NCBI RefSeq assembly: GCF_000521505.1
Contig: NZ_CP003915.1
Coordinates: 4,278,001 to 4,342,000, forward strand
Reading direction: 5' to 3'
Source: Advenella mimigardefordensis DPN7
GTDB taxonomy: Bacteria; Pseudomonadota; Gammaproteobacteria; Burkholderiales; Burkholderiaceae_B
Length of the DNA: 64,000 nucleotides
Shown: positions 5,363 through 17,774 of the stretch, piece after piece
Layout: each line of letters begins with the position of its first letter
Position numbering within the stretch: the stretch's first letter is position 1
Made by a program: the position numbers and the translations under genes
The notes under the pieces: model-generated
The model's input: the letters and a program-made list of their open reading frames with translations, nothing else
The model's database searches: none
What the model was told of the DNA's origin: nothing

Positions 5363-5580
5363 TGCGATTATTGTTCTTTCAAACCGAATTGTCAATCCAA
5401 TGCAGATCTGTGCTGTAATTTTTTTGTGCTTTGCCGCGTGCGCAAATGGCCCTTTTTTGCCTAATGCACATGAAATAGGCGACCGGACAGGAGCCAGGCG
5501 CAATTGGCAAATGTGATTTTAGTGATAGCTGATGACCATTCGATGATGCAGCAGAATGGTGGATCCTGCGGCCCTTTAGT

Positions 5581-5679
5581 CCAAGCGTTCAGGTCCAAGC
5601 GTTCAGGTCCAAGCGTTCAGGTCCAAGCGTTCAGGTCCAAGCGTTCAGGTCCAAGCTCTTCAGGTCCAGGCTCTCAGGT
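5581..5679. repeat. 14-bp tandem repeat array, five perfect plus two degenerate units
   Basis: The unit CCAAGCGTTCAGGT is repeated five times without change (5581-5650), followed by a 15-bp variant (5651-5665) and a 14-bp variant (5666-5679). It lies between two minus-strand operons, with no recognisable coding function on either strand. Confidence 0.95.
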
Positions 5680-5710
5680 CTCAACCCATCAAATTGAAAC
5701 CCGCCCGGTC

Positions 5711-8651: not shown

Positions 8652-9620
8652 TTACTTGATACCGAGCTCTTGCAGTACCTTGCTGTACCCTTCCGTTTCA
8701 TTGGCCATTTTCTGCTCAAATGCTGTGCCGTCTGCATACACATAACCCAGATTCTGCTGCTTGATAGATTTGATCAATTCAGGATCCTGCGCCACTTTTT
8801 CAAATGCAGCTTTCAACACCTGAACGGCTTCGGCCGGCATATTTTTTGGGCCGGCAACACCACGCCAGGTACCGTAAGAAACATCAATACCCGCTTCTTT
8901 TGCGGTAGGCACGTCTTTGAACTCCGGCACACGCTCGTCACTCATGACCACCAGCAGGCGCATCTTGCCGCTGCGCACATATTCGGCTGCTTCAGCGGGA
9001 CTGGTCGCCACCGCATCTACCTGCTTGCCCAGCAAGGCCAGTAGTGATGGACCCGATCCGGGATACGGTACGTGCGTGACCTTGGTGCCGGACTTGACCT
9101 CGAACGCGCTGAGGGCCACATCGTAAACCGCGCCTGTGCCGGGGGTGCCCACGTTCATGCCATCTGGATTCTTTTTGGCTGCAGCGACAAATTCTTCTAC
9201 AGACTTATAGGGCGAATCATTGTGCACCACCAGTGTCGTCGGATCAGCGTTCAATTGAACCAGTGGTGTGAAGTCTTTGTAAGAACGGTCAAACAGATTC
9301 AGCAACGGCAAGGTCACAAACTCGCCGGTCACCACGGCCAGGGTGTAGCCGTCTGGTTTCTGGTTAAGGACATACTTCCACCCCACCGCGCCACCCGCGC
9401 CGGATTTGTTCAGCACGATCATGCCTTTGGGGAAATGCTTTTCTGCAGCTTTGGCGAAACTGCGGGCAACCGCGTCGGTGCCGCCGCCGGGCTGAAAGGG
9501 AACCACTAGTGTAATAGGCTGGGCAGGATAGTTATCTGCCGCGACCGCCAGAGCGGGAATGGTAGCCAGGCCGGCACAGGCAAGAAGTGAGCCCAGCAAG
9601 GCACGACGAGGGTAGATCAT
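8652..9620 (-). CDS. Bug/TctC-family periplasmic substrate-binding protein
   Basis: A 322-aa receptor with a signal peptide MIYPRRALLGSLLACAG...AVAA that starts with a twin-Arg. Then come the Bug signatures YPAQPITLVVPFQPGGGTDAVAR, NKSGAGGAVGW, KPDGYTL, VPYPGSGPSLLALLGKQVDA and VPTAKEAG. Bug proteins bind small carboxylates for tripartite tricarboxylate transporters; here no TctA/TctB genes are adjacent. The ATG at 9620, with GGAG upstream, is the start. A longer reading frame beyond it is made only of the ATCCATAA octamer array and is discarded. It is the first gene of the cupin-SDR-SDR-IclR operon, so it probably delivers that pathway's substrate. Confidence 0.85.
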   Translation of the reverse strand: MIYPRRALLGSLLACAGLATIPALAVAADNYPAQPITLVVPFQPGGGTDAVARSFAKAAEKHFPKGMIVLNKSGAGGAVGWKYVLNQKPDGYTLAVVTGEFVTLPLLNLFDRSYKDFTPLVQLNADPTTLVVHNDSPYKSVEEFVAAAKKNPDGMNVGTPGTGAVYDVALSAFEVKSGTKVTHVPYPGSGPSLLALLGKQVDAVATSPAEAAEYVRSGKMRLLVVMSDERVPEFKDVPTAKEAGIDVSYGTWRGVAGPKNMPAEAVQVLKAAFEKVAQDPELIKSIKQQNLGYVYADGTAFEQKMANETEGYSKVLQELGIK

Positions 9621-9704
9621 GACGGGTTTGTCTCCAGAGAAAGTCAATAGCGAAAAAATGCAAGCTGCGCGTGGTCGCACATATGAACACAAGCGCGTTG
9701 TTAT

Positions 9705-9760
9705 ATCCATAAATCCATAAATCCATAAATCCATAAATCCATAAATCCATAAATCCATAT
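9705..9760. repeat. Octanucleotide tandem repeat ATCCATAA upstream of the Bug gene
   Basis: Six perfect copies of ATCCATAA (9705-9752) plus a seventh with one change (9753-9760). It is followed by an inverted partner: CCATATTATGG (9755-9765) and TATTATGGAT around 9777-9786. The array starts 85 bp upstream of the Bug start codon, in its 5' untranslated or promoter region. Simple repeats in this position can vary in copy number by slippage and alter promoter spacing. Confidence 0.95.
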
Positions 9761-11773: not shown

Positions 11774-13552
11774 TCAGGCAGATGGTTTGCCCTGCTTGCC
11801 TGGCTCACCAGAATCACCGGGCCTCCCTGGCTTATCTGGCACCAGGTAAGGAATCCTGAATATGACATCCCGGTCTTTTTGTTTTTCAGGCTCGGAAAGC
11901 GTTGCCCAATCCACCATAGAAGGATGCAGGCGCCGCCGGTCATCTCGTTGCGGACCATAGCGCCAGCCGGCCAGATAACGCTGCGCCACCCAGCGCGCAT
12001 GCTCTACTTGCGCCAGCATTTGCACCTCTTCAGCAGTGAAGGACAGCGCGCCATGCACACCCGCCCCCTGCTCCGGCGTCCCCACCAGTTTGCCGCACAT
12101 CGCCAGTTTGTAGGCAATATGATCGGCCTGCGCACGGTTCGTATCTCTGGCCTGTTCATTCAACATATCCCACGATTGCTTGAAGGCCTCGCTTTCGCTG
12201 ATCGAACCCTGCTGTGGTGCAAGTTGCTGCAGATAGTCTTCGTGAATGCTGCGCGCCGTGATATCCAGGCGTTCCTGGGTAATCAGCTCCACCTGGCAGA
12301 CCGATTCCAGGCTACCGAAAAAAGTCAGGCGGTTTAATCTGCTCTGTCGGGAGCGAAGGAGCGCATTCAGGCCATCATTTTGATAATTCAGCACATACAC
12401 GCGAAATACATCGGCTGGTGTCGCATGTAATATTTCAAGTGACAATTTCAGATTGGCTGAGTCATCGTCAAATGCAACGATCACCACCGGTACAAGATGC
12501 TCCGGTGGATCAATAACAAGCTCATTCAAAATGGGTTCATAAGCGCCGTCAAACGTCATAAATTTGATTGATGACACCATCGCGGCGCCAGGATACTCGG
12601 CGGCCAGTTCGCGGCCCATCTGTTCGGCGTTAGCGCCATACACAATAATGTCGGGCGACGCCGGGTTAAGCGTATGCATCACCTGCAAGGCCTGTACCAG
12701 CAAGGCTCTGGCCGTAGGCCCCGTACCAAAGACAATCAGCCGGAATACCGCCTGCGGGTCCTGCATATTTTGCGCATAATCATAAGGCAGCCGCGCAAAG
12801 AACTGCCGGGCAATCATCTGATGGTGGTTGAAGAACCGCAAGTCAATGCCGTTTTGCTTTTCATCTTCGAAATAGTCCGATTGCTGCAGCATCGCGCTGA
12901 CTTTCGCATTACCGATATGCAGAAAACAGCGTACCTGATATTTCCCGGGGTGCTTTTGCGTGATCTGGTGCAGCGCCTGCACCACATTAATGGTGGTTTG
13001 CTCTTTATCCAGAAAACAAATCATGAAGCGCGCGCTGCGAATACCCGCATCCTGCAGCACAGTGCTTTGCGTCGCATCACCAAAATAAACCAAATGCCCT
13101 TCACGCCGCAGCGCCCCCGCATTCCGGTGTTCAGCGTTCAGTTCAATGGCCACCCCCGTGGTATCGTGGGTATTCTTCAGGTCACCCAGCAATGCGCGAC
13201 CCTTTTGATTGATGCCGATCACCAGTATCTGGTTGCGCCTGAATAGCAGTCGAAATTGGGTGTAGTACTCAACGAAGAGCTTCTGCGCAATCCGGTACAT
13301 CCCGGCCAGCAAGGCCACCGTTACCACGATTTTGACCAATGTCAGTTGCCATGGCAGATTTTCCGGGGGCAAAGAAGACGCCACCGGATCCGAACCCATC
13401 AAGGTCCGCAAGGTACGGTACAGTCGTTCCGGAAGATAGAGCCATTCATTAATCTGTGGGTATTGTTTCCCCAGGCCATTCCAGGTCAGCACGATGACCG
13501 CAAGCCCACCCAGCAAGACCAGAATACTTTTTGTTCGACGCGATAGTTTCAT
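11774..13552 (-). CDS. Two-TM, double TrkA-N (Rossmann) protein with C-terminal RyR domain
   Basis: A 592-aa protein. Helix TM1 spans about residues 9-24 and TM2 about 70-88, with a 45-residue loop lacking a TVGYG potassium filter. A first TrkA-N-like Rossmann domain starts at ILVIGINQKGRALL (about 109) and includes LVYFGDATQSTVLQDAGI. A second starts near FRLIVFGTGPTARALL (about 276). The C-terminal RyR domain has EHARWVAQRYLAGWRYG and RRRLHPSMVDWATLSEPEK (about 508-560). The last 20 residues are a collagen-like Gly-X-Y run. TrkA-N domains bind NAD(H) or nucleotides; bacterial RyR domains are proposed nucleotide sensors. The ATG directly abuts the stop of the upstream TIR gene, so coupling is certain. 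Inference: a nucleotide-gated membrane effector or sensor. Confidence 0.75.
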   Translation of the reverse strand: MKLSRRTKSILVLLGGLAVIVLTWNGLGKQYPQINEWLYLPERLYRTLRTLMGSDPVASSLPPENLPWQLTLVKIVVTVALLAGMYRIAQKLFVEYYTQFRLLFRRNQILVIGINQKGRALLGDLKNTHDTTGVAIELNAEHRNAGALRREGHLVYFGDATQSTVLQDAGIRSARFMICFLDKEQTTINVVQALHQITQKHPGKYQVRCFLHIGNAKVSAMLQQSDYFEDEKQNGIDLRFFNHHQMIARQFFARLPYDYAQNMQDPQAVFRLIVFGTGPTARALLVQALQVMHTLNPASPDIIVYGANAEQMGRELAAEYPGAAMVSSIKFMTFDGAYEPILNELVIDPPEHLVPVVIVAFDDDSANLKLSLEILHATPADVFRVYVLNYQNDGLNALLRSRQSRLNRLTFFGSLESVCQVELITQERLDITARSIHEDYLQQLAPQQGSISESEAFKQSWDMLNEQARDTNRAQADHIAYKLAMCGKLVGTPEQGAGVHGALSFTAEEVQMLAQVEHARWVAQRYLAGWRYGPQRDDRRRLHPSMVDWATLSEPEKQKDRDVIFRIPYLVPDKPGRPGDSGEPGKQGKPSA

Positions 13553-16500
13553 TTATGGATGTTCCTGCATGTTTTTCTGCGCCTGTTCAAGCAGGGCCGT
13601 GGTTTTTTCCCGGACGCCGGCGTCTTTTACGCGGTTCAGTTGCAGGCGAACCATATGGCTCAGGCTGCGCGCAACAAAAGCGGTATCCTTATTCCTACTG
13701 TAATAAACGGCCAGCGCTGCTCTGGCCATCGGATGAAAACGCCAATATCGATCAATCAATCTCAATTGATCATCGTCTCGTACCGGAATGTATTTGTCCA
13801 GATAGGCGGTCAATGGCCGCGAAGAACCCGGCACGGGTGGCCTTACATAGGGATCCTGGAAAAACCACGAATCCGGACGCTGGCTGACGCCCGGCGCGTC
13901 AATCACGGCAGCACTCTCGCTATCATATTTTTTACCAAAATAAATTTCAGTTTGATCCGCCAATTCGTTCGCGGGCGCCAGCAAGGCATTGGGCACCGCC
14001 CATACATTCAACACGACCTGGTCGGCTCTGACATCCAGCGTCAGAATATCCTTGCCATCCGGCATCATCTCAACGTCCGTGATCCTGCTGGTGCCAAAGG
14101 GCATCACAACCGGTACCGCCGTCGTGGTGTCATACATCGCGATACCTTTGTCGCTGCCAAGCGTTTGTGGATCGGTCGTAAACAGATACTTGCTATCGGC
14201 AGAAAAATTCATATAGCCGCCAAGCGCGTCGTTTTTGATTTTCTGCCCTATCGGCCGCTGTTTCTCCAGATTCCACAAACGTATATATCTATTATCTTCG
14301 GCCACTGCCAGCACTTTGCCGTCCGGACTCAGACGCGCCTTTGGCAAATCGCCAGCTGTCGGGAACTTCAGCGGTTTGGTGAAATCGGACAGATCATACA
14401 GTTGCGCCCTGTCATTGAAAAAAGTCAGCAAGTATTGATTATCGGGTGTGAAAAAGGCGCCTTTGATCGGGGTGCTTTCCTGATGCAACTGCTTGCCAGT
14501 TGCAATATCTGTCACCCGCCAATTACCACGTACATCCAAAGACAGCAGCGTTGATAAATCTTCGGATAATTTGTACTTCTCCTTCTTTTTGAGATCGACG
14601 GTTCGCACACGCTCGCCTGACTCTATGTTCCAGATGCCAAGGTGGGTGTCGTCGATTCTTGATGAAAATTGCGTGCCATCATGGCTGAACGACAACAACC
14701 CTTTCACAGACATCGTCTTGCCTATCGGTTTACCGGTACCTGCCCGAAAAAAACGCAATTGGTTAAAACCGTCTTTTTCCGGTGTTGACACAGCATAGAC
14801 AACATCATTTTCAGCCAGCACGCCGAAATAGCTTATGGCAGATGGCGTGTTCACAAAATCACGCACGCCCCCTTTGCCGTTCAGAGCAAGATACTGCAGC
14901 GAGTGGCTGTTTTTCTTAAGAAACAGCACGCCCGAACTGTCAGGTGTGGCATAGAGACTGACCAGCGCAGAATCCAGCACAAATTGCGAACGCAATAATG
15001 ATGGCGCCAGGTCTGTCACCAGATAGTACGAACCTTGCTGATTGACCACTCGCTGCGTCATATCCGGCGATACACCGGATGAGATATCATGAAACAAGCG
15101 CTCCAGATTAATTGCCGATTCACCGGTTAACAACACCTTATCGGTCGCCATTTCATGGACGGTATACTGGCCGCCCCAAAGGGTCGTATACGTTTTTCCA
15201 TCGTCATTGAAATAAACGTCGTCTGGTACGAACTTAGCCGGCACCTTGCTTACCTGACGATCATCGCGTTGCAGATCAATGTGGTACATGCCTTTAACTG
15301 CGCGCGCAAACAGATGTTGAGCGTCAGGGCTGAATCTCACATTCGCAACGCCCCCAGGGACCGGGTAATTCCGAGCCTGCTGCAGTTCTCCTTCAGCATT
15401 GACAGGGTAAACGAGCACGCGACTATTGTTTTCATCGCTGGCATAAAATGCAATCGCCCTGCCTTGCGGTTCGATCACCACGCGCTCCGAACTGGTGCTC
15501 TGGCTGCGCGGAGTCGGCACCTCATCCACAACAATCTGACCAGTACGAAGATTAACGATTTGTGATTTGATGTACTGTGCCTCGCCGTTCGTGCCGGCCC
15601 ACGCCTGTATAACAAGCCAGTTGCCGTTATCGTCAGGCGTAAAACTGGCAAGCCGCAAATCTGAAGGCATCTCGTAAACGATACGGGCGGGCTTGCCCTC
15701 TTCCCATGCCCCTATCTTGCTATCGGCCCTCGTAAAATACAGAACATTGCGATTATCAAATTTCATTTTCGACAACGAGCTGGCATTCACATCGCTCAAA
15801 ATCGTATGCAGTTTCTGACTATAGGCATCCCAGATCTGCACGCCGCGCTTCGCATTGGAAGAGGCATCCACAGCGGCAATCCAATGACCATCCGGACTGA
15901 ATACGGGCGCAGATTCCACCCGGGGCATCAACGTCATGCCGTTCTCGCGCATCAGCATGGATTGCACAAATAAAGCCGTTCGTTCATTGCCGTAGCGAGT
16001 GGCCGCCGCCATGTACGCCGCGCCTTCCCCCACTTCTCTCTGATCAATTCTGTTCAGGCCCGACAAAAACAGCGAACGCGACAGCATGGTTTGCGCGCTG
16101 TTGCGCTCTGTCCAGGCGTATATACCCAGCGCTACCGCCATCAGTGCCAGCACCCCAATCACAACTGCAATCCGCTTGACGATTTTGGTGCGCTGCCTGG
16201 CCTTAACCAGTTGATAGGCCTGATCACGCTGGGTGAGATCGCCCAGCGGCACATCCAGCAACCCGGCAATAATCTTGAGTTTGGCCAGTTCGAGCCGATC
16301 CTTGTAGGCCTGAACACGACGATCCACTTCCTTGCGGGAAAGGGTTTTATCGTCCTGCAATACCTGCCGGTAGGCTTGCGGTGTTGTAAAGCCCTGTTCC
16401 TGCGTACCGGGCAGACGCGCATCGGCAGCAATGGGCTCCTGGCTCACGCTGTGGTCAATATTGCCGGACTCGTCTACACGATAACGCAGCACCTCGGGAA

Positions 16501-16927
16501 AGCACTGCAGCTCAGTTGATTCCGTGCCGTATTCGGGTTCGCCTGCAAGAATCAGCGCAATAATCCGATTACTTTTGCCGGTCCGCTTGAAGTGGCGCAG
16601 TTCTTCCCCAACATAAACAGACCTGGCCGATCGCGGTGAACTCAGATAAACAAGATAAGCGGACGCGTCCAGCGCCGTGGTGAGTGCCGACGTTAAATTC
16701 GAACTGGCTGACAGTTCTTTTTCATCCTGAAAAACGGGATAGATGTTCGCCGGGATCGGCTTGCCGGCACGATTGGGTTTGCCCACCAGATCGGCGGGCA
16801 CCTCGTACGTCTCCAGTTCGTGATGCAGCCAGTCTGCCCATTTGCGCCCTTCCTCCCGGTTATCAGCATGGCTGTAACTGATGAACGCCGCGTAGGTCTG
16901 CCGGCTGTCTGCCGCTTCTTCAGTCAT
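13553..16927 (-). CDS. TIR-domain, single-TM, beta-propeller protein
   Basis: An 1124-aa protein. The TIR domain is at about residues 10-150: AAFISYSHAD as first strand, VFQDEKELSASS as BB-loop region, and SVYVGEELRHF carrying the likely catalytic Glu around 108-109. A charged linker follows, then one TM helix at about 252-271 (AVVIGVLALMAVALGIYAW). About 800 residues of WD40-like or YVTN-like blades come next (repeated FSPD, LSPDG and IWN/LWN motifs), and the C-terminus is helical. TIR enzymes hydrolyse or cyclise NAD. This TIR plus TM plus propeller layout is common but little studied in proteobacteria. The propeller would face the periplasm if the TIR is cytoplasmic. No ribosome site is obvious before the ATG. 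It is operonic with the RyR protein. Confidence 0.8.
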   Translation of the reverse strand: MTEEAADSRQTYAAFISYSHADNREEGRKWADWLHHELETYEVPADLVGKPNRAGKPIPANIYPVFQDEKELSASSNLTSALTTALDASAYLVYLSSPRSARSVYVGEELRHFKRTGKSNRIIALILAGEPEYGTESTELQCFPEVLRYRVDESGNIDHSVSQEPIAADARLPGTQEQGFTTPQAYRQVLQDDKTLSRKEVDRRVQAYKDRLELAKLKIIAGLLDVPLGDLTQRDQAYQLVKARQRTKIVKRIAVVIGVLALMAVALGIYAWTERNSAQTMLSRSLFLSGLNRIDQREVGEGAAYMAAATRYGNERTALFVQSMLMRENGMTLMPRVESAPVFSPDGHWIAAVDASSNAKRGVQIWDAYSQKLHTILSDVNASSLSKMKFDNRNVLYFTRADSKIGAWEEGKPARIVYEMPSDLRLASFTPDDNGNWLVIQAWAGTNGEAQYIKSQIVNLRTGQIVVDEVPTPRSQSTSSERVVIEPQGRAIAFYASDENNSRVLVYPVNAEGELQQARNYPVPGGVANVRFSPDAQHLFARAVKGMYHIDLQRDDRQVSKVPAKFVPDDVYFNDDGKTYTTLWGGQYTVHEMATDKVLLTGESAINLERLFHDISSGVSPDMTQRVVNQQGSYYLVTDLAPSLLRSQFVLDSALVSLYATPDSSGVLFLKKNSHSLQYLALNGKGGVRDFVNTPSAISYFGVLAENDVVYAVSTPEKDGFNQLRFFRAGTGKPIGKTMSVKGLLSFSHDGTQFSSRIDDTHLGIWNIESGERVRTVDLKKKEKYKLSEDLSTLLSLDVRGNWRVTDIATGKQLHQESTPIKGAFFTPDNQYLLTFFNDRAQLYDLSDFTKPLKFPTAGDLPKARLSPDGKVLAVAEDNRYIRLWNLEKQRPIGQKIKNDALGGYMNFSADSKYLFTTDPQTLGSDKGIAMYDTTTAVPVVMPFGTSRITDVEMMPDGKDILTLDVRADQVVLNVWAVPNALLAPANELADQTEIYFGKKYDSESAAVIDAPGVSQRPDSWFFQDPYVRPPVPGSSRPLTAYLDKYIPVRDDDQLRLIDRYWRFHPMARAALAVYYSRNKDTAFVARSLSHMVRLQLNRVKDAGVREKTTALLEQAQKNMQEHP

Positions 16928-17115: not shown

Positions 17116-17514
17116 TTATTCGCTCCAGTCCTCAACCACCATGTGAGGCAACTGCATAAATGCCCGGTCATTGGTTACCAATACAGCTTGCTCACTGACT
17201 GCATGTGCAGCAATAAGCATGTCCAGCGCACCCAGACTCCTGCCCTGTTTTTCCAGCGTTGCGTGCAATTTTCCATAACTCGCGGCCGAATCACTACGCC
17301 AGTGAAGTACCTCAATATGCGTTAAAAACGCATGTATCAGCGTATGCAGCGATTTCGATTGCGGTCGTTTAGCAAGACCAAACAATAATTCCGCTTGCGT
17401 GATGACCGAGATGCACAAAGATGCCATCGGAACGGTGGTTAACCTGGACACGACTAAAGGATGATTCTTCAATGCCAGGCTCACCATATTGGTATCTAAC
17501 ATGTAACGTTTCAT
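17116..17514 (-). CDS. vapC: VapC-type PIN-domain toxin
   Basis: A 132-aa PIN domain. The acidic catalytic set is present: Asp in MLDTNMVS (residue 7), Glu in TQAELLFG (about 42), Asp in LGALDMLIAAHA (about 99) and Asp in VTNDRAF (about 117). VapC toxins are Mg-dependent ribonucleases that cut tRNA or rRNA and are neutralised by VapB. It lies 5 bp after the VapB gene on the same strand, with AAGAGA before the ATG. Length and motifs are complete, so it should be active. Confidence 0.9.
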   Translation of the reverse strand: MKRYMLDTNMVSLALKNHPLVVSRLTTVPMASLCISVITQAELLFGLAKRPQSKSLHTLIHAFLTHIEVLHWRSDSAASYGKLHATLEKQGRSLGALDMLIAAHAVSEQAVLVTNDRAFMQLPHMVVEDWSE

Positions 17515-17519
17515 TCTCT

Positions 17520-17774
17520 TTACTCGGCAAAGGGGTCACGATCCTGCTGCTCACTGGCACCACGCTCGTCTTTTGAGAGAAAGTCCTGGGGGGCCGGATG
17601 TTTACCCACCAACTGTACAAATGCATCCCATGTGGGTGGCCTCTGAGACAAAATCACGTCCCCCGTTCTTTCATCTTTCCGAATAAAGACTTCCGTTCCT
17701 TCGAACCGGAAGGCGGCAGGCAGCCGCACCGCCTGACTGCGGCCATTGGCAAATAATTTGGCAATTTGCGTCAT
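17520..17774 (-). CDS. vapB: VapB-type antitoxin (AbrB/SpoVT fold)
   Basis: An 84-aa protein. The N-terminal swapped-hairpin DNA-binding domain reads AKLFANGRSQAVRLPAAFRF, then EVFIRKDERTGDVILSQRP. The C-terminal tail is acidic and should wrap the toxin. The final residues QDRDPFAE are typical of VapB. It comes first in the pair, has GGAG before the ATG, and has a perfect inverted repeat 15-42 bp upstream that is the likely autorepression site. Confidence 0.9.
   Translation of the reverse strand: MTQIAKLFANGRSQAVRLPAAFRFEGTEVFIRKDERTGDVILSQRPPTWDAFVQLVGKHPAPQDFLSKDERGASEQQDRDPFAE

What the first reader, a model, noticed from the sequence alone, without database searches (positions are those of the whole stretch)
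11774..16927. TIR/beta-propeller protein coupled to a TrkA-N/RyR membrane protein
The stop TAA of a 1124-aa TIR-TM-propeller gene directly abuts the ATG of a 592-aa protein with two TM helices, two TrkA-N-like Rossmann domains and a C-terminal RyR domain. TIR domains can turn NAD into signalling nucleotides; TrkA-N domains bind NAD-like ligands; bacterial RyR domains are proposed nucleotide sensors. The natural reading is a two-protein circuit in which a propeller senses an envelope or infection cue, the TIR makes a nucleotide, and the RyR/TrkA-N protein responds at the membrane, perhaps as a channel. The separate parts are known families; the two-gene unit as a system is, to my knowledge, not experimentally described.
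Basis: partly seen in the sequence, partly recalled or inferred. Interest (0 to 1): 0.8.

Follow-up and report, generated by a model that had tools for sequence, protein, structure and literature searches.

The report
TIR receptor paired with RyR channel
A relative of the bacterium Advenella carries two abutting genes, one for a TIR protein with a twin beta-propeller predicted to lie outside the cell membrane and one for a predicted channel-like membrane protein ending in a ryanodine-receptor domain, and together they likely form an immune-type circuit in which the first would turn NAD into a messenger that would open the second.

Summary
A 1124-aa TIR-TM-double-propeller gene ends in a TAA that abuts the ATG of a 592-aa gene (2TM, two Rossmann/RCK domains, RyR domain). 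In the genus, 6 of 10 genomes carry the RyR gene and all 6 have the TIR gene directly upstream. E109, at the TIR catalytic Glu position, is invariant in 48 of 48. Topology is predicted TIR-in, propeller-out. Protein 2 models as TM1-pore helix-TM2 plus a tandem-RCK unit (GsuK, CASTOR/DMI1) without a K+ filter. Its RyR domain keeps all four ligand residues of phage RyDEP, which binds and cleaves 2'/3'cADPR (2026 preprint). Outside Advenella, such RyR genes, picked without regard to neighbours, lie near TIR or DUF4062 genes in 3 of 11 genomes (0.2 expected within 10 kb; driven by DUF4062, one below cut-off) and in one plasmid; others adjoin patatin, caspase or STAND genes. Best reading: a Thoeris-like NAD-signal circuit with a new sensor and a new channel-type effector. 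Signal, binding, conductance and phage defence are untested. A 2025 preprint surveying TIR systems could not be read, so priority is open.

The parts
13553..16927 (-). Gene 1: TIR - TM - twin beta-propeller protein, 1124 aa
   Evidence: ORF; Pfam TIR_2 and WD40-type propellers; AF2 model mean pLDDT 83.9
16541..16885 (-). TIR_2 domain, residues 15-129
   Evidence: 38.7 bits, cut-off 28
16601..16603 (-). Codon of E109, expected catalytic Glu of the TIR domain
   Evidence: invariant in 48 of 48 TIR-propeller proteins; position checked. Catalytic role by analogy, recalled
16115..16171 (-). Single TM helix, residues 253-271, predicted N-in/C-out
   Evidence: hydropathy; N flank more positive than C flank in 48 of 48 rows
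13985..15937 (-). Two tandem beta-propellers, about residues 331-642 and 643-981, predicted outside the cytoplasm; no Cys in residues 276-1124
13556..13975 (-). C-terminal mostly helical tail, residues 985-1124
   Evidence: AF2 secondary structure
13550..13555 (-). Abutting TAA/ATG junction
   Evidence: same in 5 of 5 Advenella loci read
13563..13566 (-). AGGA, Shine-Dalgarno-like, inside the end of gene 1, 10 bases before the ATG
   Evidence: sequence read
11774..13552 (-). Gene 2: 2TM - tandem Rossmann/RCK - RyR protein, 592 aa
   Evidence: ORF; Pfam; AF2 model mean pLDDT 83.1, pTM 0.77
13463..13540 (-). TM1, residues 5-30
13397..13444 (-). Pore-helix-like element, residues 37-52; no K+ filter motif
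   Evidence: AF2; motif in 0 of 19 rows
13241..13351 (-). TM2, residues 68-104
12773..13237 (-). First Rossmann/RCK domain (TrkA_N), about residues 106-260
   Evidence: Pfam TrkA_N 52.4 bits; GsuK, TrkA, MthK
12263..12760 (-). Second Rossmann/RCK domain, about residues 265-430
   Evidence: AF2 model and tandem-RCK fold matches; no Pfam hit
11864..12025 (-). RyR domain, residues 510-563 (helices to about 570)
   Evidence: Pfam 44.2 bits; profile matches animal ryanodine-receptor repeats and a bacterial 'putative ryanodine receptor'
11999..12001 (-). H518 codon, equals RyDEP H75; W521, H543, D560 equal W78, H100, D117
   Evidence: alignment with gp78 of phage DyoEdafos

Best explanation
The two abutting genes encode a TIR protein with a predicted twin beta-propeller and a predicted 2TM, tandem-RCK protein with a RyR domain, and they likely work as one membrane signalling circuit: the propeller, predicted to face the periplasm, would sense an envelope or infection cue, the TIR domain, predicted to be cytosolic, would convert NAD into an ADP-ribose-type messenger, and the RyR domain would bind that messenger and open the channel-like protein, likely depolarising or arresting the cell. 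Shown here: gene order, junction, conservation, domain content, the TIR Glu and the RyR ligand residues. Predicted: topology and channel fold. Inferred: signal chemistry, direction of signalling, gating and a defence role.
Against: No biochemistry. No PADLOC hit. In 9 of 13 loci outside Advenella no TIR or DUF4062 gene was seen beside the RyR/RCK gene; neighbours there are patatin, caspase, STAND, PrsW or unrecognised. The enrichment rests on DUF4062 (2 near, 0.017 expected), one of the two below cut-off; TIR alone (1 near, 0.19 expected) is not significant. Conflict genes cluster, so proximity may be a shared-island effect. No viral-contig relatives confirmed, and the Advenella locus is fixed and vertically inherited. 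No K+ filter (0 of 19), so conductance is unsure. H543 is Ser or Asn in 7 of 19 family members and D560 is Asn in 2. P0082 may be a deletion or an assembly error.
Confidence: 0.47

Rival explanations
1. Roles reversed: the RyR/RCK membrane protein is the sensor or gatekeeper, reading NAD(H), ADP-ribose or ion state, and the TIR protein is the killer that drains NAD. The neighbouring enzyme is swapped between systems as a lethal effector.
For: The RyR/RCK protein is the constant part while neighbours vary: TIR, DUF4062, patatin, caspase. DUF4062 proteins are reported to defend by draining NAD (abstract). RCK domains bind nucleotides (GsuK entries with ADP and NAD).
Against: In Advenella the sensor-like twin propeller belongs to the TIR protein. 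The pore region is the most conserved part of gene 2. RyR ligand residues match a cADPR-binding domain.
Confidence: 0.24
2. Envelope or ion homeostasis, not immunity: the pair couples an envelope cue to membrane potential or NAD status as a housekeeping stress response.
For: Fixed locus and vertical inheritance beside fetAB-like genes; purifying selection throughout, dN/dS 0.03-0.15; no PADLOC hit.
Against: RyR in 1 of 43 genera sampled in the family. Relatives sit with conflict-type genes: caspase, patatin, nSTAND, and DUF4062 with a type I restriction gene and recombinases nearby. Four other Advenella genomes keep fetAB-like genes without the pair.
Confidence: 0.17
3. The RyR domain is a brake: like RyDEP it hydrolyses or soaks up the TIR product and keeps the TIR protein safe until overwhelmed.
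For: The RyDEP catalytic dyad H75/D117 is retained as H518/D560.
Against: A brake needs neither a pore-like TM unit nor a tandem gating ring. The eight tested phage homologs did not cleave; six bound.
Confidence: 0.1

Closest known systems
Thoeris anti-phage systems (type II: TIR + ThsA with macro domain)
   Same: A TIR enzyme next to a protein with an ADP-ribose-type ligand domain; type II ThsA binds His-ADPR and disrupts the membrane (passage in PMC12948488)
   Different: The TIR here is predicted to be membrane-anchored with a twin propeller. The partner has RCK and RyR domains, not macro, SLOG or SIR2. PADLOC finds nothing
Phage RyDEP RyR-domain proteins
   Same: RyR domain with all four ligand residues
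   Different: RyDEP is a stand-alone counter-defence enzyme or sponge; here the domain sits on a 2TM-RCK protein beside a TIR gene
Tandem-RCK channels: GsuK, Slo1, plant CASTOR/DMI1
   Same: 2TM-pore unit plus two RCK domains as a gating-ring-like unit (model)
   Different: No K+ filter motif, and an added RyR domain
Swarozyc / DUF4062 TIR-like NADases
   Same: DUF4062 genes lie beside RyR/RCK genes in L069, L103 and, below cut-off, L080
   Different: No DUF4062 in the window genome
Animal Toll-like receptors
   Same: Predicted outside sensor, one TM, cytosolic TIR
   Different: Propeller not LRR; reversed order with TIR at the N-terminus; likely enzymatic. Analogy only (recalled)

Membership tests
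Thoeris | TIR protein with catalytic Glu | tested here: met
   TIR_2 over cut-off; E109 invariant 48 of 48; that E109 is catalytic is by analogy
Thoeris | ThsA-type effector with SIR2-SLOG or macro domain | tested here: not met
   Pfam finds only TrkA_N and RyR in gene 2 at E<=1
Thoeris | Effector gated by a TIR-made ADP-ribose signal | not testable with these tools
   needs biochemistry
Thoeris | Protects against phage | not testable with these tools
   needs plaque assays
RyR/R12 domain (PF02026) | Score over the curated cut-off | tested here: met
   44.2 bits against 27.4
RyR/R12 domain (PF02026) | Ligand residues H75, W78, H100, D117 of RyDEP | tested here: met
   H518, W521, H543, D560
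Tandem-RCK channel | TM1-pore helix-TM2 plus two RCK domains | tested here: met
   AF2 model and fold matches; a model, not a solved structure
Tandem-RCK K+ channel | T[VIL]G[YFL]G selectivity filter | tested here: not met
   0 of 19 aligned proteins, first 140 residues
Swarozyc | DUF4062 domain | tested here: not met
   no match in the window genome G000
PADLOC-listed defence systems | Match to a PADLOC model | tested here: not met
   0 families for genes 1, 2 and VapC at E<=1

The most novel reading that the evidence does not exclude
A bacterial outside-in immune receptor whose TIR domain makes a cyclic ADP-ribose that directly gates a RyR-domain tandem-RCK channel: a two-gene bacterial counterpart of the cADPR-ryanodine-receptor axis, and a new Thoeris-like type with a channel effector.
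Probability: 0.32. Interest if true: 0.92.

Novelty: new variant of a known kind. Interest (0 to 1): 0.73.

Why it matters
Whether cyclic ADP-ribose acts on ryanodine receptors directly is a long-standing question (recalled). A compact bacterial pair in which a candidate cADPR maker abuts a candidate RyR-gated channel would make that testable with two genes in E. coli. It would add a RyR-gated, pore-type effector to TIR immunity and would suggest why many phages carry RyR-domain proteins (152 of 50,697 phage records match the window RyR region at E<=0.01). The swap of partners around the same RyR/RCK protein points to a wider family of RyR-linked conflict systems.

Tried and rejected
Chance abutment of two unrelated genes: rejected by 6 of 6 genus loci. 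Recent mobile insertion in Advenella: rejected; fetA/fetB-like genes lie directly downstream in 6 of 6, and malE upstream in 5 of 5 that have upstream sequence (G003 has about 5.8 kb extra between malE and VOC, and G007 lacks a VOC match). Four Advenella genomes of a separate group (FetB 69-72% identical) have fetAB-like genes without the pair. Classical Thoeris or a PADLOC-listed system: not met. K+-selective channel by motif: not met. fetAB as part of the unit: not adopted, because it occurs without the pair. Phage-borne copies: none confirmed in viral contigs. Plasmids: no record covers 80% of either window protein. The TIR domain alone finds no PDB chain by sequence, and the listed fold matches of the whole gene-1 model were propellers, so the TIR fold was not tested by structure. 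The wide protein searches scored only the best 7,997, 7,994 and 7,997 candidates, and 120 of 446 TIR hits were listed. Contig lengths suggest co-location with a listed TIR hit for 6 of the 13 closest RyR proteins; this is indirect, and 7 show no such match.

Neighbour survey: 13 loci or lineages with a RyR/RCK protein outside Advenella, the RCK part judged by BLAST or Pfam. They are 11 genome loci (L055, L056, L057, L058, L060, L078, L079, L080, L081, L082 by PF02026; L103 by the gene-2 alignment, whose other matches are mostly TM/RCK only), the Arcobacter plasmid L069, and Sinorhizobium plasmids L070/L104 (RyR there below cut-off; L105 fetched, not examined). TIR or DUF4062 neighbour: 4 of 13 (L055, L069, L103, and L080 below cut-off). 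Patatin: 4 (L057, L060 by Pfam; L058, L081 by similarity). Caspase: 2 (L055, which also has the TIR, and L078). STAND without TIR/DUF4062: 2 (Sinorhizobium; L056 by similarity). PrsW protease: 1 (L082). None recognised: 1 (L079, with a piece similar to the SLATT-like protein of the patatin loci). Absence of TIR_2 and DUF4062 near the RyR gene was checked for the 11 genomes, not for all plasmid stretches. Dropped before the count: L054 (RelA/SpoT-RyR) and L059 (phage gp49-RyR), in which no RCK domain was found. In the rate comparison FetB, malE and VOC of L106 were left out because they read in broken frames; malE of L107 and VOC of L109 were not in hand.

Literature: searches listed no paper that I recognised as describing this pair or a RyR-gated TIR effector; PMC10907252 and PMC7159879 hold neither 'RyR' nor 'TrkA'. 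Papers under 10.1093/nar/gkv1267, PMC7685563 and Yirmiya 2025 are not held, so absence from print is not claimed.

Full report
WHAT IS THERE. The window lies in a 4.76-Mb assembly of 2 contigs, estimated 100% complete; the named genome hits of gene 2 are Advenella species. On the minus strand, gene 1 (13553-16927, 1124 aa) ends in TAA directly before the ATG of gene 2 (11774-13552, 592 aa). An AGGA inside gene 1 ends 10 bases before that ATG, and five of five Advenella loci read have the same TAAATG junction, so translational coupling is likely. Gene 1 has one match in its own genome.

THE LIGAND CLUE. PMC13232231 (parts 1 and 2 of 6 of the text, and passages) reports that the phage protein RyDEP is a RyR-domain enzyme that cleaves 2' and 3' cyclic ADP-ribose, and that six of eight tested homologs form stable complexes with these signals while none of the eight cleaved them. 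RyDEP contacts the ligand with H75, W78, H100 and D117. I fetched gp78 and aligned it with 19 other RyR domains: the window domain has H518, W521, H543 and D560 in those columns. Of the 20 rows, H75 and W78 are kept in 20, H100 in 18 and D117 in 14. In the 19-protein alignment of the gene-2 family, the H518 column is His in 19, W521 is Trp in 18, H543 is His in 12 (Ser or Asn in 7) and D560 is Asp in 17, so distant relatives may bind something else.

CONSERVATION AND LINKAGE. In the genus, 6 of 10 genomes carry gene 2 and all 6 carry gene 1 directly upstream. fetA/fetB-like genes follow directly in 6 of 6, and malE lies upstream in the 5 with upstream sequence, with two local differences. The other four genomes are a more distant group and have fetAB-like genes without the pair. 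In the family, RyR occurs in 6 of 200 sampled genomes and 1 of 43 genera. Over five Advenella orthologs mean identity is 88.1% for the TIR domain, 65.8% and 71.3% for the two propeller halves, 93.5% for the pore region and 78.1% for the RyR domain; FetB is 92.6% and malE 93.5% over fewer genomes. The presumed sensor changes fastest, but dN/dS stays at or below 0.15 and dS is near or above 1 with some saturated pairs, so this is relaxed or diversifying change at most, not proof of an arms race.

NEIGHBOURS ELSEWHERE. In 398 sampled genomes of the phylum RyR occurs in 8, the window's own included; in the family of one of them in 8 of 149; the gene-2 alignment added G256. I examined 11 genome loci with a RyR/RCK protein, chosen without regard to neighbours. 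TIR or DUF4062 genes lie close by in three: L055 (TIR-nSTAND1-WD40, gene edge about 2.2 kb away, convergent, the only TIR_2 match in that 78%-complete genome), L103 (DUF4062-STAND-WD40, about 0.5 kb away, convergent, the only DUF4062 match there, though that genome has 16 TIR_2 matches elsewhere) and L080 (DUF4062-nSTAND1, next gene, 20.8-23.9 bits against a cut-off of 24.7). These 11 genomes hold 45 TIR_2 and DUF4062 matches in all, so 0.20 would be expected within 10 kb (Poisson p for 3 or more = 1.2e-3). The excess comes from DUF4062 (2 near, 0.017 expected, p = 1.4e-4); TIR alone (1 near, 0.19 expected) is not significant. Conflict genes cluster, so these p-values overstate functional linkage. 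An Arcobacter plasmid, found with the gene-2 protein, carries TrkA-N, RyR and DUF4062 genes in a row, with a type I restriction gene and recombinases nearby. DUF4062 is reported as a family of TIR-like NADases with an anti-phage role (PMC13174449, abstract and passages). Other partners are patatin (4 loci), caspase (2, one of them L055), STAND NTPases and a PrsW protease. One metagenome-type protein, P0082, joins a TIR-propeller to the RyR tail of gene 2; it may be a real fusion, a deletion between the neighbours or an assembly error.

MECHANISM. Cue outside -> propeller -> TIR activation -> NAD to ADP-ribose-type signal -> RyR domain on the gating ring -> pore opens -> arrest or death. Only the parts list is shown; every arrow is inferred. 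The main alternative is that the constant RyR/RCK protein is the sensor and the swapped enzyme the killer. The Advenella architecture, with the sensor-like twin propeller on the TIR protein, favours the first; the partner swaps favour the second. I put 0.47 on the first and 0.24 on the second.

NOVELTY. It would work like Thoeris type II (TIR plus a membrane-acting ADP-ribose reader; passage in PMC12948488) but fails the ThsA domain test, so I do not file it as Thoeris. I recognised no paper describing the pair among the listings of nine searches. Three likely sources are not held, and one of them, a 2025 survey of TIR systems, could already include it.

Noticed in passing
window 9705-9759: Perfect 8-base tandem repeat ATCCATAA, 6.9 copies, at the start of the ORF 9758..8652 (TctC-like by eye). 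The unit is not a multiple of three, so the start may be phase-variable.
   Followed up: no
window 5579-5680: 14-base tandem repeat, 7.2 copies, 93% matches.
   Followed up: no
window 17116-17774: VapC-like toxin gene (17116-17514) with an 84-aa VapB-like ORF (17520-17774, by eye) lies between the VOC gene and gene 1; VapC had no match in the other Advenella loci compared.
   Followed up: partly
L106 (G004): fetA, fetB, VOC, malE and the LysR gene all match in two or more pieces that look like broken frames, as from sequencing errors or decay in that assembly; genes 1 and 2 read through there.
   Followed up: no
L055: Caspase, RyR/RCK and caspase-FGE genes in a row, with a convergent TIR-nSTAND1-WD40 gene.
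   Followed up: partly
L054 6041-8560: RelA/SpoT - TPR - RyR protein of 840 aa: a RyR domain on a candidate alarmone enzyme.
   Followed up: no
L056: Reverse transcriptase and FGE-type ORF beside a RyR/RCK gene, resembling a diversity-generating retroelement.
   Followed up: no
L059 7734-8672: Phage gp49-type domain joined to a RyR domain; 152 of 50,697 phage records match the window RyR region, perhaps sponges or hydrolases like RyDEP.
   Followed up: no
L063: A relative of the SLATT-like protein of the patatin-RyR loci lies next to a TIR gene; no relative of gene 2 was seen by BLAST in that stretch.
   Followed up: no
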